Shown here piece after piece: positions 19,236 to 33,382 of a DNA stretch of 35,147 nt. The stretch is taken from NCBI GenBank assembly GCA_021816425.1, contig JAKAXT010000011.1:1-35147 (forward strand), given 5' to 3'. Below the pieces are notes generated by a model, which searched no databases, was not told where the DNA came from, and saw only the letters and a program-made list of their open reading frames with translations. The first letter of the stretch is position 1. The number at the start of each line of letters is the position of its first letter. The position numbers and the translations under genes were made by a program. This stretch comes from Pseudomonadota bacterium. GTDB lineage: Bacteria; Pseudomonadota; Gammaproteobacteria; Acidiferrobacterales; Acidiferrobacteraceae.

Positions 19236-20579
19236 TCAGGCCTCCGACAAGGCGGCCCTGATCTCGCCCGTCAGGATCGAGAGATCCCTGGGTCTTATCA
19301 CATAAGGGGGCATGAGATAGACGAGCCGACCGAAGGGGCGCAGCCACACGCCGGCCTCCACGAAACGCGCCATGAGCCACTCGGGGTCTATGGGGCTGCG
19401 CGTCTCCACGACCCCGATTGCGCCCAGGACGCGGACGTCGCGCACCACGGGCAGTCCGCGGCAGGCGTCGAGCTCCCGCCGCATCTGCTCCTCGATTCCG
19501 CGGACCCTGGCCTGCCAATCGCCTGACAGGAGAAGGTCGATGCTCGCGACGGCGAGCGCACAGGCCAGGGGGTTGGCCATGAAGGTCGGTCCATGCATCA
19601 GACAACCGGCCTCGCCACGCGTGATCGTGTCGGCGATCTCGGTCGTGGCGAGAGTCGCGGCAAGCGACATGTATCCACCCGTGAGCGCCTTGCCCAGGCA
19701 CAGAATGTCCGGCGCCACGCCCGCATGGTCGGAGGCAAACAGGCGGCCGGTGCGCCCGAACCCCGTGGCGATCTCGTCTGCGATCAGAAGCACGTCGTGG
19801 GCATCGCAGAGGGCGCGCACCGCGCGCAGGTATTCCGGGTGATAGAACCACATGCCGCCCGCGCCCTGCGCGATCGGCTCCAGGATGACCGCCGCCAATT
19901 CGTCCTGGTGGGCCGTGATCAGGCGCGCGCACTCGGATATGGCCGCGGGCTCCCAGGGCTCGTCGAACCGGCACGCGGGCCGCGGCGCGAAGATCTGCGT
20001 GGGGACCACGCCCGCGAACGAACGGTGCATGCCGGTCACGGGGTCGCACACGGACATGGCGCCCAGGGTGTCCCCGTGGTAGCCGCCGCGCAAGGCCAGC
20101 AGACGGCGCTTGGCCGGACGTCCGCGGCCCTGCCAATACTGGAGCGCCATCTTGATCGCGACCTCGACGGCGACCGATCCCGAGTCGCAGAGAAAGACCT
20201 TTTCGAGGGGCGCCGGGGTCAGATCCACGAGCCTGCGCCCCAGATCGATGGCCGGCCCGTGCGTAAGGCCTCCGAACATGACGTGGGCCATGGACCGCAA
20301 CTGCCCGCGCGCGGCGCGGTTCAGGGCCGGGTGGTTATAGCCATGGATCGCGGCCCACCACGAGCTCATGCCATCTATCAGCCGACGTCCATCGGCCAGC
20401 ACGAGCCGCACGCCGTCGGCCGCCACCACCGGCCACGGCGGGGCGGACCCGCCGATGGGGGCATAGGGATGCCAGAGATGGGCCCGATCGAAGGCCAGGT
20501 CCTGCGCCCAGTCGCGACCGGGGGACACCGGGTCCCGCGGCGTCGCGCCGGACGGGGCGACGGTCTCGGTCGGCCTCAA
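19236..20579 (-). CDS. bioA: BioA, adenosylmethionine-8-amino-7-oxononanoate aminotransferase
   Basis: PLP enzyme that uses S-adenosylmethionine as amino donor to make 7,8-diaminopelargonate. The 447-aa protein has [26 protein letters not shown] (active-site tyrosine region), the cofactor phosphate loop [19 protein letters not shown], the [14 protein letters not shown] aspartate, and PLP lysine in [13 protein letters not shown] full-length, clear class III aminotransferase. Its ATG overlaps the ilvD stop by 4 bp. Confidence 0.95.
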
Positions 20580-22249
20580 TCCGTCACCGCGCCACGACTT
20601 GCCGAGGAAACGAGCCGCGCATACTTGGCCAAGGTCCCGCGCGTATGACGGGGCGCCGGCGGCTGCCAGTGGGCGCGGCGGCGCGCGAGCTCCAAGGCCG
20701 GCACATCGAGATGCAGGAGATGGCGCTCGGCATCGATGACCACCGTGTCGCCTTCGGCCACGAGCGCGATCGCACCGCCGACCGCGGCCTCCGGCGCCAC
20801 ATGCCCCACCACCATGCCGTAGGTGCCGCCGGAGAAGCGGCCGTCCGTGACGAGCCCCACCCGGTCACCGAGTCCCTGACCCACGAGGGCCGCGGTCGGC
20901 GAGAGCATCTCGCGCATGCCGGGACCGCCCTTCGGCCCCTCGTAGCGGATCACCACGACGTCCCCCGCCGCTATGCGGCGGTCGAGAATGGCGGCCATGC
21001 ACGCCTCCTCCGAATCGAACACGCGCGCCGGACCCGTGATCTTCGGGACCTTCACTCCGCTCGTCTTGGCAAGCGCCCCCTCCTCGGCGAGATTGCCCTT
21101 CAGGATGGCCAGATGACCATGCGCATAGACGGGCCGCTCCCAGGGCCGGATGACGTCCTGGTCGGCGCGTGGGCGCTCGGGCACGGCGCCCAGGGCCTCG
21201 GACACCGTCTGTCCGGTCACAGTGGGCGCATCGCCGTGCAAAAGGCCGTGCGCAAGCAGGATCTTCATCACCTGAGGGACCCCTCCGGCGCGATGGAGGT
21301 CGGTCGCGACGTAGCGTCCGGACGGCTTCAGATCGCACAATACCGGCACGCGCGCGGCGAAGGCGTCGAAGTCGTCCAGCGTCAATTCCACGCCCGCGGC
21401 GTGCGCGATCGCCGGCAGATGGATGACGGCATTGGTGGAGCCACCGAGCGCCATAAGCACCGCCAGGGCGTTCTCGAAGGCCTTGCGGGTGAGGATGTCG
21501 CGCGGCAGGCGCCTCGCCCTCAGCGCGTCGACCAGGACTCGTGCCGACTGCGCGGCGCTGTCGGCCTTTTCGGGGTCCTCCGCCGCCATGGTCGAGGAGT
21601 ACGGCAGGCTCATCCCCATGGCCTCGAACAGGGCCGACATGGTATTGGCGGTATACATGCCGCCGCAGGACCCGGCGCCCGGACAGGCGCGGCGTTCGAT
21701 CTCGTGCAGCGCGCGATCGTCGATGGCGCCTGCGATGCGCGCCCCGACCGCCTCGAAGACGCTCACGATGGTGAGGTCCTGCCCATCATGGCGCCCGGGC
21801 TTGATCGTCCCGCCATAGACGAACACAGCGGGGATGTTCAGGCGCGCTATGGCGATCATGGCGCCTGGCATGTTCTTGTCGCAGCCGCCAAATGCCAGAA
21901 GGCCGTCCATGCTCTGGCCGGCACAGACGGTCTCTATGGAATCCGCGATGACCTCGCGCGACACCAGGGAATATTTCATGCCCTCGGTGCCCATGGAGAT
22001 GCCATCGGAGATCGTGATCGTCCCGAACATCTGCGGCATCGCCCCGGCGGCCACCAGGGCCGCCTCTCCGCGCCCGGCGAGGACCCCTATCCCCATGTTG
22101 CACGGCGTGATGGTGCTGTGGGCGTTCGCCACCCCGACGATCGGCTTGTCGAAATCGCGATCGCCGAAACCCGTTGCGCGCAACAGGGCCCGGTTGGGGG
22201 CGCGCTCTATGCCGGTCGTCACCACGCGGCTTTTATGATTGTCGGACAT
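20576..22249 (-). CDS. ilvD: IlvD, dihydroxy-acid dehydratase
   Basis: Fe-S dehydratase of valine/isoleucine synthesis. The 557-aa protein shows the cluster cysteines in [19 protein letters not shown] and [16 protein letters not shown], and the C-terminal [20 protein letters not shown] signature. AGGAGAAGG stands before the ATG at 22249, which fixes the start; the longer frame upstream is not typical. It is embedded between pyrC and bioA in one minus-strand run, a combination of unrelated biosynthetic functions. Confidence 0.95.
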
Positions 22250-22302
22250 AACCTTCTCCTGAAATAAGCACTGGGACTCCTGGCCCCGCCCAAATAACCG
22301 AA

Positions 22303-23400
22303 TCAGCGGGCGAGCCGCCAGCCGACGACCTCCCCGGCCCGCAAGGGCACGAGGACGTCGCCGCCTGCGGGAATCGTCGACGGTACGCGCCACGGCTCCT
22401 TCACGAGCGTGATGCGATCTTGATTGCGGGGTAACCGGTAGAAGTCCGGCCCGTTGCCGCTTGCAAACCCCTCGAGCCTATCGAGCGCATGGGCCTTTTC
22501 GAAAACCTCGGCATAGAGTTCGAGCGCCGCGTGCGCGGTATAGATTCCGGCGCACCCGCACGACGACTCCTTGGCGTGCCGGGGATGCGGCGCGCTGTCG
22601 GTCCCGAGGAAGAATTTCGGGCTGCCGCCGGTCGCGGCGGCAACCAGCGCGGCACGGTGGTCGGCGCGCTTTAGCAGCGGCCGGCAGTAATGATGCGGTC
22701 GCAGACCGCCGTCGAACAGGGCGTTGCGATCGAGCAGCAAGTGATGGGCGGTGATGGTGGCCGCGAGCGTATCCGGGCTTGCGTTCACGAACTCGACTGC
22801 GGCGCGGGTCGTGATGTGTTCCAGGACCATGCGCAGGCCCGGGAACGCCCGCATGAGCGGCGACAGGTGACGCTCGAGGAAGACCGCCTCGCGGTCGAAG
22901 ACATCCACCGAGGGGTCCGTGACCTCGCCGTGCAGGAGCAGCGGGAGATCGTGACGCTCCATGGCCGCGAGCACCGGATAGCAGCGCCGGAGGTCCCGCA
23001 CGGCATGCGCGGTATTGGTGGTCGCGCCGGCCGGATAGTATTTGAGGGCATGCACGATGCCGGATGCCTGCGCGCGGGCCACCTCGGACGACGTGGTCGT
23101 CTCGGTCAAATAAAGCGTCATCAAGGGCTCGAGGCGCGCGCCCGCGGGCAAGGCCGCCAGGATGCGCGCTCGATAGGCCAGGGCCTCGTGGACTTTGCCT
23201 ATCGGGGGATCGAGATTGGGCATGACGATGGCCCGAGCGAAGCGCCGCGCGGTATCCGCCACGGCCTGGGCCAACATCGCTCCATCCCGCAGGTGGACAT
23301 GCCAATCGTCGGGGCGGGTGAGGGTGAGCCGCGCGCCCTGCCCGGGGCCGTGCGCCCCGCGGCCCACACCGCCCGGGGCTTCGAAGCTCGGGGTTTCCAT
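22303..23400 (-). CDS. pyrC: PyrC, dihydroorotase (class II type)
   Basis: Zinc amidohydrolase that interconverts carbamoyl-aspartate and dihydroorotate. The 365-aa protein has the [12 protein letters not shown] zinc motif, the bridging carbamylated lysine in [32 protein letters not shown] and [14 protein letters not shown], as in E. coli PyrC. A GTG at 23412 lies in frame; the ATG at 23400 is preferred. It begins 11 bp after the stop of the DUF6671 gene. Confidence 0.95.
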
Positions 23401-23411
23401 GCGCGGAGACA

Positions 23412-24296
23412 CTAGGGGTTACAGTAATCGCAACGCGCCGGATCGGCAGGCGCGGGATCTTCGCAGTCACGCGTCAGCCGATGTCCGCACCTGAGGCAGC
23501 CATGGACCTCGGCACGCGTCTCGCGCGTCGGTGCCCCGCATGCCTGACAGGGCCGTCCTGCGATCGATTCGACCACCCAGAACCCGGGGGTGCGGCAAAC
23601 CGGGCAGAGGGACGCCAGACGCCGGCCGAGATCGACTGCGGCAAGCCGGATATTGACGAGGCGGGTGGGGTTCGCGTAGGCGCGTAGATCCACTTCGATG
23701 AATACGCGCCCGCCCGAGGACTGCGCGGCGGCCCAGTCGTAGGCCGCCTTAAGCTCCGACCAGTGGGCGATCCCCTTGCGGATCCGCGGGTCGCCATCAT
23801 GATCAGGCCTTACGACCAGATAGTGATCGGGAAAGCGTACCGCATGCGCGAACCGCTCGGCGTCTTCCCAGCTCGCCGCCAGGATCTGGGCACTGTTGGC
23901 CCGGCCCTGCGCCACGCCGACCACCTCGAGCCCGAGCAGCTTGTCGAGGAAAACGAGAAGCTCGACATTCCACGGGAACATCCCCGCAAACGGGTCGGGC
24001 GCAAAGGATCCCTCGCTGGCGAGCCCGACGGGCAGCCCCGAGAGTTCCATGCCGATCTGCGCCTTGCGGCGGGCCGCTTCGAGCTGCGTGCCGGCCCGCG
24101 CGACATCCCGCGTGAATGTGCCGAGGAGATCCGTGTCATAGCCCGCGACCCGCTCGACGAGGCAGCCCACGAAGCCCTGAAGGACGGGACCTACGATGTC
24201 CTCCTTCCCATGCTGGGTCAGGAAGGCCGCGCGCTGCCCCCGGTAGGGGCTTCGGGCCGGTGGCGCATGAGGGGTCACATGCCCGCCCAGGCTCAT
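23412..24296 (-). CDS. DUF6671-like protein with C-terminal zinc-ribbon cysteines
   Basis: A 294-aa cytoplasmic protein of unknown function that resembles DUF6671. Typical elements are [20 protein letters not shown] (18-37), [39 protein letters not shown] and [19 protein letters not shown]. The C-terminal 65 residues carry four CX2C pairs (CPVC, CQAC, CLRC, CDYC), enough for two zinc sites. Its ATG overlaps the stop of the DabA-like gene by 4 bp, so the two are co-translated; this pairing is the best functional hint available. Confidence 0.7.
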
Positions 24297-26560
24297 GACA
24301 GCTGCCGCCAGAGCCCGTCACGGCCGCGCAGGAATAGGCCGCCGGCCTCGCCGTCCATCTGAAACAAAAACAGCCATCCGTGCTCCACCACATTACGCAC
24401 GATGTCGTGATGCGCCAGGACATCGTCCATGCGCTCGCGGGGCGCCTCCACGAACGCGCTCAGGCGCATCGGCTCGTGGACCCGGTGCGCTCCGCCGAAA
24501 GGCGGCGGGACCGGAAGACCGCGCCCAGGGTCGCCTTCTGCCCCCTCCAGCACCCCGATGGACCCGCCCCGCATGCTATGCCGGACCCCATTGCCGCCGC
24601 CGTAGCGCTCATGGTCGACCACCGACGCGTAGTAGCGCATGTTCATCCAGTGGGCGGCCATCATGGGCGCGGTCATGATGAACCGCAGGATTCGGGAATC
24701 CTCGTCCCCGCGCCAGTCGTAGTCGTGCAGGGACGCGCGGCCCTCCAAGGCCATCCCCTCGGTACGCGCGCGCGGCGCCGCGATAAAGGCCGCGCTGCCG
24801 ACGGATTCCTGCTCGGCGCAGACCCGCAACCGCTCCTGCGGCCGCCCGCCGCTGGAGCCGCCCGCGCGAGGCGCCGCGAGGACCGGCGCGCAATCGCGCT
24901 CCCTGCGCACCCACAGGCCCGCCTCCTTCAAGACGGCACGGGCATGACGCAGATCCTGGGCGTGCGTCGCCTCCCATTGCGCGGCCTCGAGCAGGGCGGC
25001 CTCGTCGCGCGCCCTGTCGTACCAGGTCGCGAGGAAGCGCGTATCCGCGGGGATCGCAATCCCCTCCTGCGCAAGGCGCGCGCGTACGGCGCGATCGTTC
25101 AGCAGGGCGGCCGCCGTGTGCGCATCCATCGCGCCGATCTGGTCCCAGACGGGTTGCCGACCGGCCCTTGCGCCACGGGGCTCGTGACCCGGTCGCCGGT
25201 CATGCGCGATTAGCAAGACCAGTCGCGCGAAACCCTCCGTGAGCGACATGGCGCGGAGAATGGCCCCGGCCACGGCGCTTCGGTCGGCGTCCGCGAGGGC
25301 GGGCGCCGCCCCGCGGTCCCCGCCCTGCAAGGGCCCATCGGCGGGCGGCGCGGTCTTTAGACCTACATCCAGGGAAGGCTCGAACGGGGCCCGCGCGAGA
25401 GGGAGGCCACAAAAGCCGCTAAACCCGATGGTCTGCGTCCCCGGGGCGACCGCCTCCAGGGCGCGGCGCAGGACCTCGGAGGGGGCGCCCATGCAGAACA
25501 CGGCCTGGAGGGTGGCGCGGCCACTTTCGGCACGGCCGACGGGCCGCTCCACGCATGCGGCGAGATCGGCGATGATGCGTCGCCGATATCCGAGCTCGAG
25601 CGCCGCCTGAAGGACATAGTCGATCTCGGCGTCGGGCGTAGCGCAAGCCGGTGGTGTCGGCGGCAAGGCCGACAGGGCCGTCCGCCAGGCGGCTTCCCGT
25701 CGCGGAATTTTGGCGGCGCGCAAGATGATCAAGTCCCAGGCCAGGCGGATGGCGAGCAGGTCCTCGACGTCGCGGCGCCCATGCCCCGGGCGCGGATGAC
25801 GCGCGCACGTGGCCCACCCGCCGATATCGAGAAGCGCGGCGTGGCAATAGTCGGCGACGTGGGCGTCGGGGATGGCGAGCGCCTTCAGGACGAGCGCGAT
25901 GGATTCCAACGGCTGGCGGGGCAGTCCCGCGACGATGCCCGCCACGCCCTTCAACCCCAGGGTCCGAGGGCTTGCATCCAGCCTCGCGAAGCTGCGCCAT
26001 GCGTCGTAGAGGGGCTCGCTACGCCAGGGCAGCGGCCATGACGCCTGACCGGTATCGAAGTAGGCGGCCGCGAACCGGCTTATGCGCTCGACGCAAAAGG
26101 CGGCCCATGGCCTGGCGGGGTCGGTTTCCTGCAAGACGTGCGACACGAGCGGCACCCGCGGCACGGGGGGCGCGCCATCGCGCGCCAGGAGCTTGGCCAC
26201 ATGCCCCTCGTCGGAGGGCAGGCCATACGCCTTCAAGGCCTCGGCGATGTCGCCGCGCGTGATGCGGCCGGCGGCGATCCGCTCCCGGTAATAGGGGCGC
26301 GGCATGGTGAACGCGGACCCGGCCACGCGCATGAGGGTAAGGCCCGCCCTCTCGAAATCCTGATGACGCAATTCGAAATAGGGGTTGACGGCGACACAGG
26401 CGTCCAGGGCCCAGGCGGGCGCGATCCTGTCGCAGGCCTCGCGCACCGCGGCGCCCCATGCCGCCCGACCGCAGGGGGCCGGGGCCTCGGGCCCCAGGAC
26501 ACGCTGGCCCGCCACGAGCCCCTCCGCGCCTTCCCGGAATGCCCCTAAGATGCCATCCAT
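24293..26560 (-). CDS. DabA (DUF2309) family protein with altered zinc site
   Basis: DabA is the cytoplasmic, carbonic-anhydrase-like subunit of the DabAB dissolved-inorganic-carbon pump. This 755-aa homologue follows the family along its length: AVNPYFELRHQDF early, FCVERISRFAAAYFD, RRDVEDLLAIRLAWDLIIL, then AVFCMGAPSEVLRRALE and TIGFSGFCGLPLARAPF, and the C-terminal RFIMTAPMMAAHWMNMRYY and HSMRGGSIGVLEG. Of the four zinc ligands, C356 remains, the Asp of CxDxR is G358, the histidine (H453, LLIAHD) may remain, and the DCGAC cysteine is absent (WDQIGAM). A WHDTT-like motif is WYDRA. No dabB-like membrane gene is adjacent. It is either inactive as an anhydrase or repurposed. Start at 26560 is supported by GGAGGGGG upstream. 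Confidence 0.8.
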   Translation of the reverse strand: MDGILGAFREGAEGLVAGQRVLGPEAPAPCGRAAWGAAVREACDRIAPAWALDACVAVNPYFELRHQDFERAGLTLMRVAGSAFTMPRPYYRERIAAGRITRGDIAEALKAYGLPSDEGHVAKLLARDGAPPVPRVPLVSHVLQETDPARPWAAFCVERISRFAAAYFDTGQASWPLPWRSEPLYDAWRSFARLDASPRTLGLKGVAGIVAGLPRQPLESIALVLKALAIPDAHVADYCHAALLDIGGWATCARHPRPGHGRRDVEDLLAIRLAWDLIILRAAKIPRREAAWRTALSALPPTPPACATPDAEIDYVLQAALELGYRRRIIADLAACVERPVGRAESGRATLQAVFCMGAPSEVLRRALEAVAPGTQTIGFSGFCGLPLARAPFEPSLDVGLKTAPPADGPLQGGDRGAAPALADADRSAVAGAILRAMSLTEGFARLVLLIAHDRRPGHEPRGARAGRQPVWDQIGAMDAHTAAALLNDRAVRARLAQEGIAIPADTRFLATWYDRARDEAALLEAAQWEATHAQDLRHARAVLKEAGLWVRRERDCAPVLAAPRAGGSSGGRPQERLRVCAEQESVGSAAFIAAPRARTEGMALEGRASLHDYDWRGDEDSRILRFIMTAPMMAAHWMNMRYYASVVDHERYGGGNGVRHSMRGGSIGVLEGAEGDPGRGLPVPPPFGGAHRVHEPMRLSAFVEAPRERMDDVLAHHDIVRNVVEHGWLFLFQMDGEAGGLFLRGRDGLWRQLS

Positions 26561-26754
26561 GGCGCCCCCTCCGCATACGGACGACCCGCCGGCCCCAGGA
26601 CGCGGACCGCAAAGACAGCGAGGCCCACGGACACGCGCGCGCCCATCGACCGCTGCACCGCTTCCGCTCGCGAGATCCTGGTCACGGACTGGCTTCTCCG
26701 GCCGCACCGCCCATCGCGGCAAGGCAGGATATTAACGACCCTCGAGAATAAACG

Positions 26755-26966: not shown

Positions 26967-28220
26967 TCAGCAGATCGCGCTCCCGCGCCCTTCGGCCGGC
27001 GCCACACCGGGCGCCAAGGCCAGGAGCGCGAGGGGCGCCATGCCGGGGATGTGGTCTGCCACGCGGTAGTCGCCTGCGATGCGATCGGAGGCTACGGGCG
27101 CCAGACGGCGCTCCATGTATGCGATGTAGGCCGGGTGCCTGCACAATGCCTCGGCCGCGGCCGCCGAGACCAGCCGCGCCAGTATGCAGTGGCGGTAGCG
27201 GCCGTCGGCATCCACGACGCTTCCGACCTGAACGATCCGCACTCCCGCGATCCCGGACAGCGCCCGCTGCCCCTCGGCCATCAGTGCGCGCAGCGCCTGC
27301 GTATCCAGACGCGGCGCGTTGAAGACGACGACATGCATGATGTTGTTCCAGAGGCCGCACCGGCCGAGCACTTCCGCGGCGCGGCCCGCCGAGCCCCAGG
27401 CGCGCATGCGCGGCTCGAGCCGCGCGGCTATGACCTCGTTCACGCCCTCCTTCAGGGCGCCGTAGGGCGCGTTTCGATCACGCCGTACATTGGCCCGCAG
27501 CCGCTCACCCGCCATGTCGTCCAGGGCCGCTGAACAATGGATCTTGGCGACACCTTGCATGATGAGCCGGCGGCATTGCTCATCGCCAAGGTCGAATCCG
27601 TCACGGACGACCAGCGGTATCCGAAGCGCCGCGTTGATCTCCTTCAGGCGCCGCCAGTCGAGCCGCGACTTACCCGGACCGCGCGCCATTTTGGCCGGGA
27701 CGGCCAGGAAATCCACATTGGTGCGCTCGACGAAACTCCTGGCCTCGGCCACGGTCGTGGGTTGGACCGCACAGAACGCGCCCCCCTCCAGGGCATCGCC
27801 GTCGGCCACATAGGCCAATTCGCCCTCGACGGGCACGCCGCAGGCATGTGCCGCGTCCACCGTGGCGCGCGTGCGGTCGATATGACGCAACAACGACTCT
27901 CGAAGGGCGCTCGCCACGACGCCATTGGCGCCCAGGCGTACGCCGCGCATCGCGGACTTGGCGTCAGTGCCGCGATCGAAGCAGACCGCCACGGGAACGC
28001 TGGCGCGCGCGGCGGCGGCCTCCACCGCCGCCATGAACCAGGCGAACGTCGGACTCTCGAACCACGGCTCGATCATGTTGAGGATGACCGGGGCGCGGGC
28101 CGATTCGGCCGCGGTCAGCACCGCCGGCAGAAAATCCATCTCCGTAAGGTCGAAGGCGCCCACGGCATAACCGTTTTCGTAGGCGTGCCTCAGCATGTCT
28201 TTCATGTCGATCAACGGCAT
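26967..28220 (-). CDS. Class II aldolase-fold protein fused to a Dabb domain, metal histidines replaced
   Basis: A 417-aa protein. Residues 1-285 follow class II (GatY/KbaY-type) fructose/tagatose-bisphosphate aldolases: AVGAFDLTEMDFLPAVLTAA, PVEGEL, SFVERTNVDFLAVPAK, GVAKIH and WGSAGRA. Residues about 294-390 are a Dabb (stress-responsive A/B barrel) domain starting IMHVVVFNAPRLDTQALRAL. All three zinc-binding histidines are changed: DHG is D82-R83-G, the HG of the second site is R180-G, and LHGxSG is V-R206-D-G. The catalytic Asp (D82) remains. Aldol cleavage with a metal is therefore unlikely; a binding or regulatory role, or a new reaction, is possible. Start at 28220 (MPLIDMKDML) follows a G-rich ribosome-binding stretch. 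Divergent from the CbbR-type gene. Confidence 0.78.
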   Translation of the reverse strand: MPLIDMKDMLRHAYENGYAVGAFDLTEMDFLPAVLTAAESARAPVILNMIEPWFESPTFAWFMAAVEAAAARASVPVAVCFDRGTDAKSAMRGVRLGANGVVASALRESLLRHIDRTRATVDAAHACGVPVEGELAYVADGDALEGGAFCAVQPTTVAEARSFVERTNVDFLAVPAKMARGPGKSRLDWRRLKEINAALRIPLVVRDGFDLGDEQCRRLIMQGVAKIHCSAALDDMAGERLRANVRRDRNAPYGALKEGVNEVIAARLEPRMRAWGSAGRAAEVLGRCGLWNNIMHVVVFNAPRLDTQALRALMAEGQRALSGIAGVRIVQVGSVVDADGRYRHCILARLVSAAAAEALCRHPAYIAYMERRLAPVASDRIAGDYRVADHIPGMAPLALLALAPGVAPAEGRGSAIC

Positions 28221-28452
28221 AACAGGCCCCCAAGGGACGGTGACGGCGGCCGGGCCCCGCCGGCGGCGACCGCCGCGCGGGGCCCGGCCCGAAGGGATGC
28301 GAAGACCCGGGTCGGGGCATGAGGCCGCCTGCCGCGCCCGCCCCGTGCGCGGGGAGTCCGGCCGCCGAACGATCCCCTGCGCTTCGATCCATGAACGCGG
28401 GCCGCCGACCACAGGGCCCGCCGTCCGGTTAGGCATGGTCGAATTTAGAGAG

Positions 28453-28458
28453 TAAAAT
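28453..28458 (+). promoter_or_regulatory. Possible -10 of the CbbR-type gene
   Basis: TAAAAT lies in the AT-rich patch between the two divergent genes, about 50 bp before the ATG. No good -35 is seen. Confidence 0.3.
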
Positions 28459-28483
28459 GCTTAAAGGGAACTCAGTCTTCATT

Positions 28484-28508
28484 AGTGCGACCATTTACCG
28501 CCGTTAAT
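28484..28508 (-). promoter_or_regulatory. Shared 25-bp element, copy 2 (upstream of aldolase-Dabb gene, overlapping the cbbR start)
   Basis: Second copy of the element described at 26771-26795. Its end covers the first two bases of the CbbR-type start codon (ATG 28507), so a bound protein would also block that gene, as in classical LysR autorepression. It is about 265 bp upstream of the aldolase-Dabb ATG. Confidence 0.6.
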
Positions 28509-29493
28509 GATCAATCACTGGACGTTACAGCAACTTCGGCTTTTCGAGGCGGTCGCGCGCCATCGCAGCTACACGCGCGCGGCCGAAGAGCTGTGTCTGA
28601 CGCAGCCTGCGGTGCACATCCAGGTGCGGCGGCTCGAGGAGATCGTGGGGCTGCCGTTGATCGAGCGGGTCGGAAAAAAGCTGCTGCTGACACGCGCGGG
28701 CGAAGAGGTCTACACCGCCACGGTCGCGGTGATGAACCAGCTGCGCGCGCTGACCGGCGAGATCGCGGACATGAAGGGCAAGGTGGCGGGCCCCCTGAAG
28801 ATGGCGGTGGTCACCTCCGCCAAATTCTTCATGCCGCATTTTCTCGGGCTTTTCGTGCACGAATACCCGGAGGTGGCGCCCCAGCTCACCGTGACGAATC
28901 GGGCGCGGGTCCTGGAGCGGCTGGCCGAAAACGTCGACGACTTCGTCATCATGGGCCAGATCCCGAACGACATGGACCTTACGGTCCGGCCGTTCATGGA
29001 CAATCTGCTGGTGGTCGTGGCGCACCCGGACCACCCCATGGCGGGCCGGACCGACATCCCCCTGGAGGAGATCGTCCGCGAACGCTTTTTGCTGCGCGAG
29101 GTCGGCTCCGGCACACGCAGCTCGGCGGCCCAGGTGTTCGCCGAACACGGGTTCGAGGTGGAGCCGTACATGGAGCTCGGCTCGAGCGAGGCCATAAAGC
29201 AGGCGATCATGGCCGACCTCGGGATCTCGGTGCTGGCCCTGAGCAGCCTGGAGCTCGAGCTCGAAGCCAGGCGCGTCGTCATCCTGGATGTCGCGGGCTT
29301 TCCCCTGCACCGCACGTGGTATGCCGTCCACCTGCAAGGCAAGCACCTGGGCCTCACGGCCAGCGTGTTCCTGGACTTCCTGGTCAAGGAAGGCGCGGAC
29401 CTCGGTATCCGCAAGGGGTGGGTGGCCGAACTGCACCCGAGCCAACGTCCACGCACCCCCCGGAAACGGCTCGGGAAGACGCGCGCCACCTGA
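28507..29493 (+). CDS. cbbR: CbbR-type LysR family regulator
   Basis: A 328-aa LysR-type transcription factor. The N-terminal winged helix-turn-helix (5-65) reads WTLQQLRLFEAVARHRSYTR, then AAEELCLTQPAVHIQVRRLE and EIVGLPLIERVGKKLLLTRA. This is close to CbbR, the regulator of Calvin-cycle operons. The effector domain (about 92-300) includes GPLKMAVVTSAKFFMPHFL and VGSGTRSSAAQVFAEHGFEV as in CbbR. A basic tail follows. No RuBisCO gene is in the window; the regulated genes are more likely the divergent aldolase-Dabb gene and, through the shared element, the DabA-like gene. The ATG has no clear Shine-Dalgarno sequence. Confidence 0.85.
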   Translation: MINHWTLQQLRLFEAVARHRSYTRAAEELCLTQPAVHIQVRRLEEIVGLPLIERVGKKLLLTRAGEEVYTATVAVMNQLRALTGEIADMKGKVAGPLKMAVVTSAKFFMPHFLGLFVHEYPEVAPQLTVTNRARVLERLAENVDDFVIMGQIPNDMDLTVRPFMDNLLVVVAHPDHPMAGRTDIPLEEIVRERFLLREVGSGTRSSAAQVFAEHGFEVEPYMELGSSEAIKQAIMADLGISVLALSSLELELEARRVVILDVAGFPLHRTWYAVHLQGKHLGLTASVFLDFLVKEGADLGIRKGWVAELHPSQRPRTPRKRLGKTRAT

Positions 29494-29535: not shown

Positions 29536-30627
29536 CTAGCCCGCGCCCCGTTCCGGCCATTTCTGCCGCTTCTTTAGAATGGCCTCCACCAGATCGATGG
29601 CGCGTTCGAAGCTCGTCGCCACATGCCGGAAACGAATGCGCGCGCCAGGCCCGAGCATGCTCTGAAACCGCGGCCCGACCCGCTCGTCGGGGTCGTAGAC
29701 GCGAAACATCTCCAGGGGATAGTCTCCGACCGAACCGAGGGCATAGAGGTAGCGGAAGAACAGGTCCGACTCCGGCAACGAGTAGCCGATCACGAAAATG
29801 TGCTGGGCATCCGAGAGTTCCTGGGCCGCCTGCGCCCATACCCTCGTGAACTGGCTCTGATAGCCGTACTTGTTCCATGTCGGCGGGACGATCACGGGAT
29901 GTTCGCCCGATGGACGATCGAGGATGTGGGGCGTGGTGCAGAGCCGGGATACCCCGCCTGCCGGCCTTCGAAAGACGACGTCCGCGGACTCCTCCATCAG
30001 GCGATCCATCCTCCAGGGCACGACCTCGCCGCTCGCCCCTGCCACCCAGTTCAGGGATCCATGCAGCTTCAAGAGCGAAAGGCCGGCGGGCGGATCGGAA
30101 TCATCGAGGCAGTAACGCACCGGAATGCCGCCGCGATACAGGGCATAATCCAGCGCGAGATCGTAATTGAACGTAAGGATGGCGTGCCGGTAGGGTGGCG
30201 ACGCCGCCTGGCTCTCACGCAGCAGCTCGACGAATCTGGGATAGGGATCGGGCGCCGCCGGCAGCTCTCCCGCCCGTCCCTCGTTGAAGTTCAGCGTCGA
30301 CTCCAGGGTGTAGGCGATGACCGTCTTCAAGGCCGCGATCAAGGCATCGATCTCATCCACCCCATAGCCCGGCATCCTGCCGAGCAGCCTTGCCATCTCG
30401 AAGGCCGCGAACACGCTCTCGACATTGGTGATGTCCAGGTCCTGCGCCTTCGAATGCACGGCCTGGAGTTTGCCGATCGCCTCGAACACCCTCGCGAAAT
30501 CGCCCGCGCGACCCTGTACGGCCCCCGTGAACAGCAGCCTGCGCGCCTTGTCCAGGAAATTGCTCATGACCGGGGCGCCGCCCTGCTGCGATGCCCCTGC
30601 TCCCAGAATGAAAACGACATCAGCCAC
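29536..30627 (-). CDS. Stand-alone SIR2-domain protein (SIR2-like NAD-binding)
   Basis: A 363-aa soluble protein with a SIR2-like Rossmann domain through most of its length. It has the NAD loop FILGAGAS (6-13), TFNYD with N154, KLHGSLNW with H189, and the C-terminal IGYSLPESDLFFRYL. These are the NAD-site residues conserved in SIR2 proteins of bacterial defence systems, many of which hydrolyse NAD+ on phage infection. Here there is no obvious partner (no AGO, TIR, HerA or Thoeris-like gene) and the remaining sequence shows no extra domain. Start is GTG at 30627 with GGAGG 6 bases upstream. It converges on the CbbR-type gene with a gap of about 40 bp. Function as an NADase or deacylase is not decided by sequence. 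Confidence 0.8.
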   Translation of the reverse strand: MADVVFILGAGASQQGGAPVMSNFLDKARRLLFTGAVQGRAGDFARVFEAIGKLQAVHSKAQDLDITNVESVFAAFEMARLLGRMPGYGVDEIDALIAALKTVIAYTLESTLNFNEGRAGELPAAPDPYPRFVELLRESQAASPPYRHAILTFNYDLALDYALYRGGIPVRYCLDDSDPPAGLSLLKLHGSLNWVAGASGEVVPWRMDRLMEESADVVFRRPAGGVSRLCTTPHILDRPSGEHPVIVPPTWNKYGYQSQFTRVWAQAAQELSDAQHIFVIGYSLPESDLFFRYLYALGSVGDYPLEMFRVYDPDERVGPRFQSMLGPGARIRFRHVATSFERAIDLVEAILKKRQKWPERGAG

Positions 30628-30963: not shown

Positions 30964-31923
30964 GTGGATCTTACGAAACGCGCCGTGACCTACGGCTTTC
31001 ATGGGGTGACCGAGACGGAAAGCGCCCTGCTTCAGGGGATGATCGGGCGGATCGCCCGGCGCCTGCCGGGTCCCGTGGCCCACGTGAGCGCCCACGAAGC
31101 GCAGCTCGTGTTTTCGGACGGCTCCGCACCCGCTTTGGAGGGGACCTGTGCGCAACTCGTGCGCCTGGTCCGGGATGCGGAGGCGCGGGAGTTCCCGGGG
31201 TCGTTGCGCATGCCGCCGCACGTCACCGATGTTTTCGAACTATTTACGGATTTCATCAAGCGTGATGCCGATGAGCGCGCCCGATGTGGCGTCATGCGAT
31301 CACTGATCCGTTCGCTGCACGATCTGTTCCGGACCCGCGGCGCGCCGCACGCCCTCGTCGATGGGGATGAAGAGGGCGCGCGCCTGATCCTCTACCCGGC
31401 CGACCGGCAGTTTTCATGGGCCGGCGCCCAAGGCTCGCGGCCTCTGTCCGAAATGTTTCAGTCGCAGAGGATCCCGCGGCTCGGGCTGCGTCCATGGGAC
31501 GCCGCGGAGCCGGGCGCGCGCGGGAAGCGGCACGGCATCGAACCGCTGTTCTGGCACATGGGTCTTGCGCACGGGCGCTGCGGGCTTCTGCCGTGGGTTG
31601 GGCGCGACGACGTGCTCAGGATGCGCGCGTGGCCTTATCTCGCCGGACAGGGGCCGGGGGCCGCCCTGCGGCTTGCCACCGTCCTGCGCGCGCGACCGCG
31701 CAGCGTGGCGGGTCTGGCGGAGGCCGCGCGCGTCCCCGAGACCGATGCCGTGGCCTTCGCCAATGCCGCGCTGCTATGTGGGTTCGTGGTATCCGCCGCG
31801 GCCGCGGACGCGCAGGGGCTGGTGCCGGCGCCGGAGGTCCGAAGCGCGGGCATGAAGGTCCCGGGATTCGAGCGACTGCCGGGAATCCTGGGCGCCATCC
31901 GCGACGTCCTGGGGATGCGTTCG
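30964..31923 (+). CDS. Unrecognised protein, first gene of the GTPase/Roadblock operon
   Basis: A 320-aa soluble protein that I cannot assign; the TGA stop codon ends at 31926. The N-terminal half includes MPPHVTDVFELFTDFIKRDA and AARC-poor, acidic segments. The C-terminal part (about 220-285), AWPYLAGQGPGAALRLATVL followed by RPRSVAGLAEAARVPETDAV and AFANAALLCGFV, looks like a winged-helix domain often seen next to small GTPase/Roadblock genes. The GTG start is fixed by CGGAGG 6 bases upstream. Its stop overlaps the GTPase start in a GTGA, so it is translationally coupled to it. It may be the output or adaptor of the GTPase switch, which is inference. Confidence 0.65.
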
Positions 31924-32519
31924 TGAACGGCGAACTCAAGCTCTTGTTTGCGGGCGCGATGGGCGCCGGGAAGACCACCGCCATACGGGCGATCAGCGAG
32001 ATCCCGCCGATAAGCACCGAGGCCTCCAACAGCGATCATGCGGAATGCCCCAAGGACGAGACGACCGTGGCGATGGACTATGGCGAGATCACGCTCGCGA
32101 CCGGGGAGAAGCTGCGGCTCTACGGGGCCCCGGGCCAGCCGCGCTTTCAGTTCATGTGGCCCATCCTCGCCGCCGGGGCGCTCGGCGCGGTGGTCCTGAT
32201 CGACAATTCGCGTCCCGACCCTCTGGGGGATCTCGAGCTCTACGTAGACGCCTTTCGTGCGCTTGCCGAGGCCGGCGCGGCGGTCGTGGGGGTGGGGCGC
32301 ATGGACAGCTTTCCCCAGCCTACGCTCGAGGCCTATGTCGAACGTTTGGCAACGCTCGACGTCGTGGTGCCCGTGATGCCCGCCGACGTCCGTCGACGCG
32401 ATGACGTCCTCGGGATACTCGAGACACTGCTGCTGCAGATCGAGGCGACATGGGCCTATGACGAGGCCATGGGCGGCACGGGAGATCCCGTCCACCAGTC
32501 GTCGCGGGTGGCCCCATGA
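31923..32519 (+). CDS. Small Ras-like (MglA/Arf-type) GTPase
   Basis: A 198-aa P-loop GTPase. It has the Walker A motif GAMGAGKT at 11-18, a threonine-containing switch I region (DETTVAMDYGE), and GAPGQPRFQFMW at 68-79 in place of the usual DxxGQ switch II. G4 is GRMD (125-128) rather than NKxD. Such noncanonical motifs are common in bacterial GTPases that work with Roadblock/LC7 proteins, as in MglA-MglB or streptomycete conservons. Start GTG 31923 overlaps the previous stop (GTGA), and the stop overlaps the next ATG (ATGA). It should act as a cytoplasmic switch whose GTP state is controlled by the downstream Roadblock proteins. Confidence 0.85.
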   Translation: MNGELKLLFAGAMGAGKTTAIRAISEIPPISTEASNSDHAECPKDETTVAMDYGEITLATGEKLRLYGAPGQPRFQFMWPILAAGALGAVVLIDNSRPDPLGDLELYVDAFRALAEAGAAVVGVGRMDSFPQPTLEAYVERLATLDVVVPVMPADVRRRDDVLGILETLLLQIEATWAYDEAMGGTGDPVHQSSRVAP

Positions 32520-32944
32520 GCACGCGCGTGATGCCTCAGGAGCTCGTGGCGGCATTCGACGATGAGATCCGGCGATTGCACGCGCGCGTGGCGGGCGTCA
32601 TCGGCTGCGTGCTTGCCACGACGGATGGACGGCGCGTGTCGGCGGTGGTCGACAACGAGGCCGATCCGCAGCGGGTCGCGGCCATGGTGGGATCGATCGT
32701 GGCGCTCGGCGAGACCATAGGCCGCGAGGTCATGATCGGGCGCACGCAGTTCGTCGCCGTAAGCGCGGTAGGCGGCATGGTGCTGCTCCAGAGGGTGCCG
32801 GCCAGACGCGACCTCCTCGTCGTGGGCACCCTGGCGCGGCGCAACACGAATCTGGGCATTCTTCTGCATGAAACCGGCATCGCCGCGGAGGCGGCGGGCC
32901 GGATCCTCGACGAATGGTTGGGGCGCGATCAGCCGCCTGCGTGA
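32516..32944 (+). CDS. Roadblock/LC7-domain protein 1
   Basis: A 142-aa single-domain Roadblock/LC7 protein. The core shows VAGVIGCVLATTDGRRVSAV, then AAMVGSIVALGETIGREV and VAVSAVGGMVLLQRVPARRD, with LVVGTLARRNTNLGILLHE as the last strand and helix, as in MglB-like GTPase regulators. It is translationally coupled to the GTPase by an ATGA overlap and is probably its activator or scaffold. Confidence 0.83.
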   Translation: MSTRVMPQELVAAFDDEIRRLHARVAGVIGCVLATTDGRRVSAVVDNEADPQRVAAMVGSIVALGETIGREVMIGRTQFVAVSAVGGMVLLQRVPARRDLLVVGTLARRNTNLGILLHETGIAAEAAGRILDEWLGRDQPPA

Positions 32945-33022
32945 TGGCGGACAGGGCGTAACAGCGAGGGCGCGCGGCATTCGGGCGCCGCTACGGGACT
33001 CAACGAAGGACGGACAGCAATC

Positions 33023-33382
33023 ATGGCAAAGGTGGATTTGAGCAGCATCCAGGACATCGGCGGATTTATCGCGGCGGCGCTGGGCGATGCGAGCAGCGGC
33101 ATGCTGTTGGCGAGGACCGGGAACCCCTCTGTGGATCTGGATTTGGCGATAGCCGGCAACTCGGAGGTGGTGAACACGAAGCGCGCGCTGGTGGCGCGCC
33201 TGAACCTCGACGACAAGATCGAGGATATCCTGATCACGCTCGGCAAGCAGTATCACCTGATCCGACCCCTGGAGCGCAACGACAAGCTCTTCCTCTATCT
33301 GATGCTGGATCGGAGCAAGGCCAATCTCGCCATGGCGCGCCATGAGCTTCGGGCCTACGAGCAGACGCTCGATTTCTCCTAG
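33023..33382 (+). CDS. Roadblock/LC7-like protein 2
   Basis: A 119-aa protein that also looks Roadblock-like but is more divergent: IGGFIAAALGDASSGMLLAR, then an EVVNTKRALVARLN helix, DKIEDILITLGKQYHLIRPL and KLFLYLMLDRSKANLAMARHEL. It lies 78 bp after the first Roadblock gene. Two different Roadblock proteins next to one GTPase could form a heterodimer that recognises the GTPase asymmetrically; this is inference. Confidence 0.72.
   Translation: MAKVDLSSIQDIGGFIAAALGDASSGMLLARTGNPSVDLDLAIAGNSEVVNTKRALVARLNLDDKIEDILITLGKQYHLIRPLERNDKLFLYLMLDRSKANLAMARHELRAYEQTLDFS

What the first reader, a model, noticed from the sequence alone, without database searches (positions are those of the whole stretch)
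26967..28220. Aldolase-Dabb fusion with all three metal histidines changed to arginine
At every zinc position of a class II aldolase (DHG, HG, LHGxSG) the histidine is arginine (R83, R180, R206), while the barrel framework and D82 remain, and a Dabb domain is fused at the C-terminus. Coordinated His to Arg replacement suggests selection, perhaps for binding a phosphorylated or anionic ligand, not decay.
Basis: partly seen in the sequence, partly recalled or inferred. Interest (0 to 1): 0.72.

Follow-up and report, generated by a model that had tools for sequence, protein, structure and literature searches.

The report
Metal-site-less aldolase from CO2-fixation regulon
A sugar-phosphate-cleaving enzyme that normally sits in the CO2-fixation (RuBisCO) operon of sulfur-oxidising bacteria has, in one group of acid-loving relatives, lost its metal-binding active site but is still kept by selection, so it is probably a retained non-enzyme; the three arginines that drew attention look like chance products and not a designed site.

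Summary
The 417-aa protein at 26967-28220 (-) is a class II aldolase barrel fused to a Dabb domain, with Arg at all three metal-His positions (R83, R180, R206). Homologues form a CbbA-type aldolase-Dabb family of form I RuBisCO and DAB carbon-uptake loci; 38 of 66 full-length members compared keep His/His/His. The window belongs to a 12-member clade (support 99/100) in which every site is broken, but replacements differ: RRR occurs only in the window and its sister species, others being GRS, GQS, QRP, ERA, GRA, GHY, CHR, GGR, GYH, RPH. The former metal columns are among the most variable of the barrel, and the Arg codons are one A>G step from His. So selection for Arg is not supported. Yet the gene is not simple debris: frames stay open in 10 of 14 species of the genus, with omega about 0.19 (0.08 in the intact clade). 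Best reading: a retained pseudoenzyme of the inorganic-carbon regulon. Unexpectedly, the adjacent DabA has also lost its zinc-site motifs in 8/8 species examined. The fusion itself is already known (cbbA of the Acidithiobacillus ferrooxidans cbb1 operon).

The parts
26967..28220 (-). cbbA-like aldolase-Dabb fusion gene, metal site lost (417 aa + stop)
27372..28220 (-). class II aldolase (PF01116) barrel, residues 1-283
   Evidence: 8e-45; Foldseek of the low-confidence AF2 model, 3q94 at 1.9e-17
27057..27347 (-). Dabb-type domain, residues 292-388
   Evidence: by homology: PF07876 2.4e-11 in homologue L014/L036, 3bde match, alignment
27972..27974 (-). codon 83, CGC Arg in place of metal His
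27681..27683 (-). codon 180, CGC Arg in place of metal His
27603..27605 (-). codon 206, CGT Arg in place of metal His
27537..27539 (-). codon 228, CAT His in place of the active-site Asn of intact members
28427..28506 (.). conserved region next to cbbR in the divergent intergenic space (about 80 bp alignable in 9 species)
28507..29493 (+). cbbR-like LysR regulator, divergent
   Evidence: LysR domains; best NCBIfam model CbbR 8.6e-68 (below its cut-off); omega 0.07
24293..26722 (-). dabA-like gene (PF10070), zinc-site motifs lost; start codon uncertain
23412..24296 (-). DUF6671 protein, conserved neighbour
22303..23412 (-). dihydroorotase-like amidohydrolase with conserved motifs (housekeeping neighbour)
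20576..22393 (-). dihydroxy-acid dehydratase family (IlvD/Edd), housekeeping neighbour

Best explanation
This is a retained pseudoenzyme. Its ancestor was the CbbA-type class II aldolase-Dabb fusion that lies in form I RuBisCO (cbbR-cbbLS-cbbX/QO) and DabAB loci of chemolithoautotrophic Gammaproteobacteria (shown by homology and neighbourhood). In the lineage of this genus (probably Acidiferrobacter) and its nearest kin the metal site broke: H83 is lost in all members, H180 and H206 in most, and the active-site Asn and part of the phosphate loop in the genus (shown). The vacated positions then drifted, and in the window and its sister species all three are Arg, reachable by the single step CAY to CGY (codons shown; drift inferred). 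It probably cannot do metal-dependent aldol cleavage (inferred from the lost ligands). It is kept as a folded barrel-Dabb protein, probably under CbbR control, most likely as a non-catalytic binding or assembly partner in the inorganic-carbon system (inferred; partner unknown).
For: 38 of 66 full-length family members keep HHH while the 12-row window clade (support 99/100) has none intact. Replacements are heterogeneous and the metal columns are among the most variable. Loss concentrates on active-site columns (7 of 9 lost against 18 of 54 other invariant barrel columns, Fisher p = 0.016; the active-site list is from general knowledge of class II aldolases and was chosen after seeing the losses). 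Purifying selection persists: omega 0.19 for the barrel and 0.20 for Dabb in the genus, against 0.076 and 0.13 in intact members; CbbR 0.07. The gene is present in 10 of 14 genus genomes, mostly at a conserved place between cbbR and dabA. RuBisCO is encoded elsewhere in all 14 and the window genome has its own canonical class II FBA (1.5e-95; DHG/HG/HG motifs). Genus-specific fixed residues (N113H 9/9, E267Q 8/9) fit a new constraint. In another lineage a Dabb domain is kept while an internal deletion removes about half of the barrel (L046).
Against: Omega is about 2.5 times that of intact members, and 4 of 14 genus genomes lack the gene, one with only a 48-residue remnant (G009), so slow loss is not excluded. 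No partner or activity is known. The AF2 model is weak (pLDDT 60, pTM 0.53, 3 sequences). Synonymous sites between these species are divergent, so omega values are approximate.
Confidence: 0.62

Rival explanations
1. Slow, unfinished gene loss: with RuBisCO encoded elsewhere, the fusion and the neighbouring dabA became redundant and are decaying under weak constraint.
For: The neighbouring dabA also lost its zinc-site motifs in 8/8 species while full-length dabA copies remain elsewhere in the genus genomes; 4 of 14 genomes have lost the aldolase-Dabb gene; raised omega.
Against: Open frames persist over large synonymous divergence in 10 species with omega near 0.2, and a conserved upstream region. 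In G012 (L032) dabA is not detected at the locus yet the aldolase-Dabb frame stays open. Loss of the metal site predates the split from the nearest genus and from a more distant MAG.
Confidence: 0.22
2. Gain of a new catalytic or ligand-binding role in the barrel pocket that does not need the His metal site, in the whole clade.
For: E132 is invariant and E134 nearly so in the genus; several genus-specific fixed residues (N113H, Y229C, Y230S, E267Q).
Against: Pocket positions 83, 206, 209, 231 and 184 are among the most variable columns, unlike a conserved new active site.
Confidence: 0.1
3. One reading: three Arg selected together to bind a phosphorylated or anionic ligand.
For: RRR is shared by the window and its sister species at 80% identity; six of nine genus copies have R180.
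Against: The other species of the genus have G/E/Q/C at 83 and mostly S/A/P/Y at 206; the codons are single-step from His; Arg makes up about a third of all replacements over the family (20 of 58 cells), so one RRR lineage is not surprising.
Confidence: 0.05

Closest known systems
CbbA of the cbb1 operon, Acidithiobacillus ferrooxidans (ACK80290.1, AFE_1676; Esparza 2010, PMC2942843)
   Same: Same domain architecture as listed there (Pfam01116 + Pfam07876), in a CO2-fixation operon.
   Different: Annotated as an active fructose-bisphosphate aldolase in a RuBisCO-carboxysome-CbbQO operon (its own metal site was not inspected here); the window copy has no metal His and no RuBisCO at its locus.
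Aldolase-Dabb fusions of the same order (L036, L038; genomes probably Sulfurifustis and Sulfuricaulis)
   Same: Full-length homologues at 45-49% identity, CbbR at the locus.
   Different: Keep LDHG / VHG / IHGGTG and NYYT; lie downstream of cbbL and cbbX.
Class II FBA / KbaY / YdjI aldolases (7ncc, 1rvg, 1gvf, 6ofu)
   Same: Barrel fold, alignment over about residues 1-281.
   Different: No Dabb domain; 7ncc, shown aligned, has the three metal His.
H. pylori FBA H180Q variant (PDB 5ud2, 5ud3)
   Same: A class II aldolase altered at a metal His, crystallised with DHAP and FBP (titles).
   Different: Man-made single change; that it is the same His as H180 of this family is inferred from the number. 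In this family a clade of 8 is naturally Gln (one Arg) at H180 with the other two His kept.
DabA (PF10070)
   Same: The neighbouring gene belongs to this family by profile (4.9e-150).
   Different: The neighbour has lost the D of FCIDVRSE and the HGST...DCGACGG motif.

Membership tests
Class II fructose-bisphosphate aldolase (PF01116) | profile match above the gathering score | tested here: met
   153.9 bits against cut-off 25.5
Class II fructose-bisphosphate aldolase (PF01116) | three metal-binding His (DHG, HG, HGG[TS]G) | tested here: not met
   R83, R180, R206
Class II fructose-bisphosphate aldolase (PF01116) | active-site Asn after K-I/V (N228) | tested here: not met
   H228
NCBIfam TIGR00167 cbbA (ketose-bisphosphate aldolase) | score over curated cut-off 215.6 | tested here: not met
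   103.2 bits for the window copy; an intact homologue scores 230.4
Dabb (PF07876) | profile match over cut-off | tested here: inconclusive
   no match in the window copy; 44.6 bits in a homologue aligned over the same region
CbbA-Dabb of cbb operons | aldolase barrel followed by Dabb in one chain | tested here: met
   full-length alignment with members outside the genus, 41-53% identity
CbbA-Dabb of cbb operons | encoded in a RuBisCO operon | tested here: not met
   cbbR and dabA adjacent but no cbbLS at the locus; RuBisCO on other contigs
CbbA-Dabb of cbb operons | aldolase activity | not testable with these tools
   needs an enzyme assay
DabA (neighbour) | zinc-site Cys/Asp and His/Cys motifs | tested here: not met
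   FCMGAPSE and HDRRPG...ARAGRQPVW in place of FCIDVRSE and HGSTT...DCGACGG; that these motifs form the zinc site is from general knowledge of DabA

The most novel reading that the evidence does not exclude
The cbbR-proximal pair of this genus, aldolase-Dabb and DabA, are both metal-site-less pseudoenzymes maintained together: a non-catalytic module of the inorganic-carbon regulon in acidophiles, perhaps a regulatory or assembly partner of the intact DabA or RuBisCO systems encoded elsewhere in the genome.
Probability: 0.25. Interest if true: 0.7.

Novelty: new variant of a known kind. Interest (0 to 1): 0.45.

Why it matters
The one Dabb-fused CbbA found in the literature here is annotated as an ordinary Calvin-cycle aldolase, yet in this family the metal site has changed state at least five times on the tree while the gene is often kept. 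That suggests the fusion has a second, non-catalytic role next to RuBisCO and DAB transporters, which deletion and pull-down experiments can test. It also warns against counting such genes as aldolases in metabolic models of acidophile autotrophs.

Tried and rejected
Alternative alignment that would place His ligands: rejected, alignments to a PDB chain and to 38 intact members agree. Lone-mutant artefact: rejected, the whole clade is broken. Arg triad as a conserved site: rejected. General decay of the whole gene run: rejected, the dihydroorotase-like and BioA-like neighbours keep conserved motifs and ilvD has omega 0.06. A first codon-model run timed out; omega was then read from the logs and refitted. 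The genome-contig scan with the single sequence found only three loci. Literature: two A. ferrooxidans papers bore on the fusion gene; nothing on a class II aldolase pseudoenzyme of this kind.

Full report
What is there. The gene at 26967-28220 on the minus strand encodes 417 residues. Residues 5-280 match PF01116 at 8e-45, and the alignment to solved aldolase 7ncc puts R83, R180 and R206 on the three metal His. The C-terminal part is a Dabb domain by homology: Pfam does not score it in this copy, but scores 2.4e-11 in a full-length homologue, which also matches the solved protein 3bde over that region. An AlphaFold2 model built on only three sequences is weak (pLDDT 60, pTM 0.53), yet its best PDB matches are class II aldolases.

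The family. Searches of whole genomes found relatives aligning over the fusion in about 20 of 57 genomes of the order and in 53 of 369 sampled genomes of the class, but in few others of the phylum. Of 66 full-length members compared, 38 have His/His/His. Many lie next to cbbL, cbbS, cbbX or a CbbO-like gene and CbbR, and some next to DabA/DabB. The fusion is not new: cbbA of the cbb1 operon of Acidithiobacillus ferrooxidans is listed with Pfam01116 and Pfam07876 (PMC2942843).

The window's clade. All members of a 12-row clade with 99/100 support lack the intact site. Their residues at 83/180/206 are RRR (window and its sister species L031 only), GRS, GQS, QRP, ERA, GRA, GHY, CHR, GGR, GYH and RPH. 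H83 is lost in all, H180 and H206 in most. In the genus the active-site Asn and part of the phosphate loop are lost as well. Within the genus the metal columns lie at the 95th, 76th and 98th percentile of variability of the barrel, and a random triple of columns is as variable with p = 0.002. The Arg codons are CGC, CGC and CGT, one A>G step from the CAY codons of intact members, in 68% GC DNA. The Arg triad is therefore best read as drift in a vacated site. On the tree the intact or broken label changes at least five times (bootstrap 5-6); the tree is unrooted, so the direction of each change is inferred, and a conserved HQH clade is counted as broken.

Is it decay? Codon models give omega 0.19 for the barrel and 0.20 for the Dabb region in nine copies of the genus, against 0.076 and 0.13 in intact copies, 0.07 for CbbR and 0.06 for ilvD. 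The constraint is relaxed but real. Ten of 14 genomes of the genus keep the gene; G009 has a 48-residue remnant. In one relative (L046) about half of the barrel is deleted while the Dabb domain stays recognisable, which hints that the Dabb part is what some lineages need.

Context. In the genus the gene mostly stands between a divergent cbbR and a dabA, followed by DUF6671, a dihydroorotase-like gene, ilvD and a BioA-like gene. About 80 bp next to cbbR are conserved in nine species. RuBisCO is encoded elsewhere in all 14 genomes. The neighbouring dabA has lost its zinc-site motifs in 8 of 8 species, with omega 0.22 against 0.074 for intact DabA, and is about 40-50% identical to an intact short DabA of the same genus. 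In G007, G012 and G014 the broken aldolase-Dabb stands without a detected dabA next to it, so the two losses are separable.

Organism. The genus is probably Acidiferrobacter and the order Acidiferrobacterales: one genus genome is a single 3.40 Mb contig, as reported for strain SPIII/3 (PMC8889020), and two order genomes are single 4.0 and 2.9 Mb chromosomes, as reported for Sulfurifustis and Sulfuricaulis (PMC5024460).

Conclusion. The gene is best read as a pseudoenzyme variant of a known CO2-fixation aldolase-Dabb fusion, kept by selection for a role that is probably non-catalytic. What remains inferred: lack of activity, the partner, and CbbR control.

Noticed in passing
window 24293-26722 (-): DabA next to the aldolase has lost the zinc-site motifs (FCIDVRSE to FCMGAPSE; HGST...DCGACGG gone), as have all 8 copies examined in the genus; intact DabA copies lie elsewhere in the same genomes.
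   Followed up: partly
L116, L119, L134, L136, L137, L138, L139 (and L154 with Arg): A clade of 8 aldolase-Dabb proteins, several in RuBisCO-CbbO loci, has Gln (one Arg) in place of the H180 metal ligand with the other two His kept (VQGR motif): a conserved natural H-to-Q ligand change.
   Followed up: partly
L046:9107-9976: A relative downstream of cbbL-S-X keeps a Dabb domain but an internal deletion removes about half of the aldolase barrel.
   Followed up: partly
L036:9172-9555, L024:7643-7945: Two small conserved families of about 100-130 aa (called c18 and c31 here) recur between CbbX/CbbO and the aldolase-Dabb gene; function not looked up.
   Followed up: no
window 29536-30627 (-): SIR2-like protein (weak PF13289 match) conserved beyond cbbR in most species of the genus.
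   Followed up: no
window 30964-33382 (+): Conserved run of genes beyond the SIR2-like gene, two of about 120-140 aa, one resembling a Roadblock/LC7-type protein by eye.
   Followed up: no
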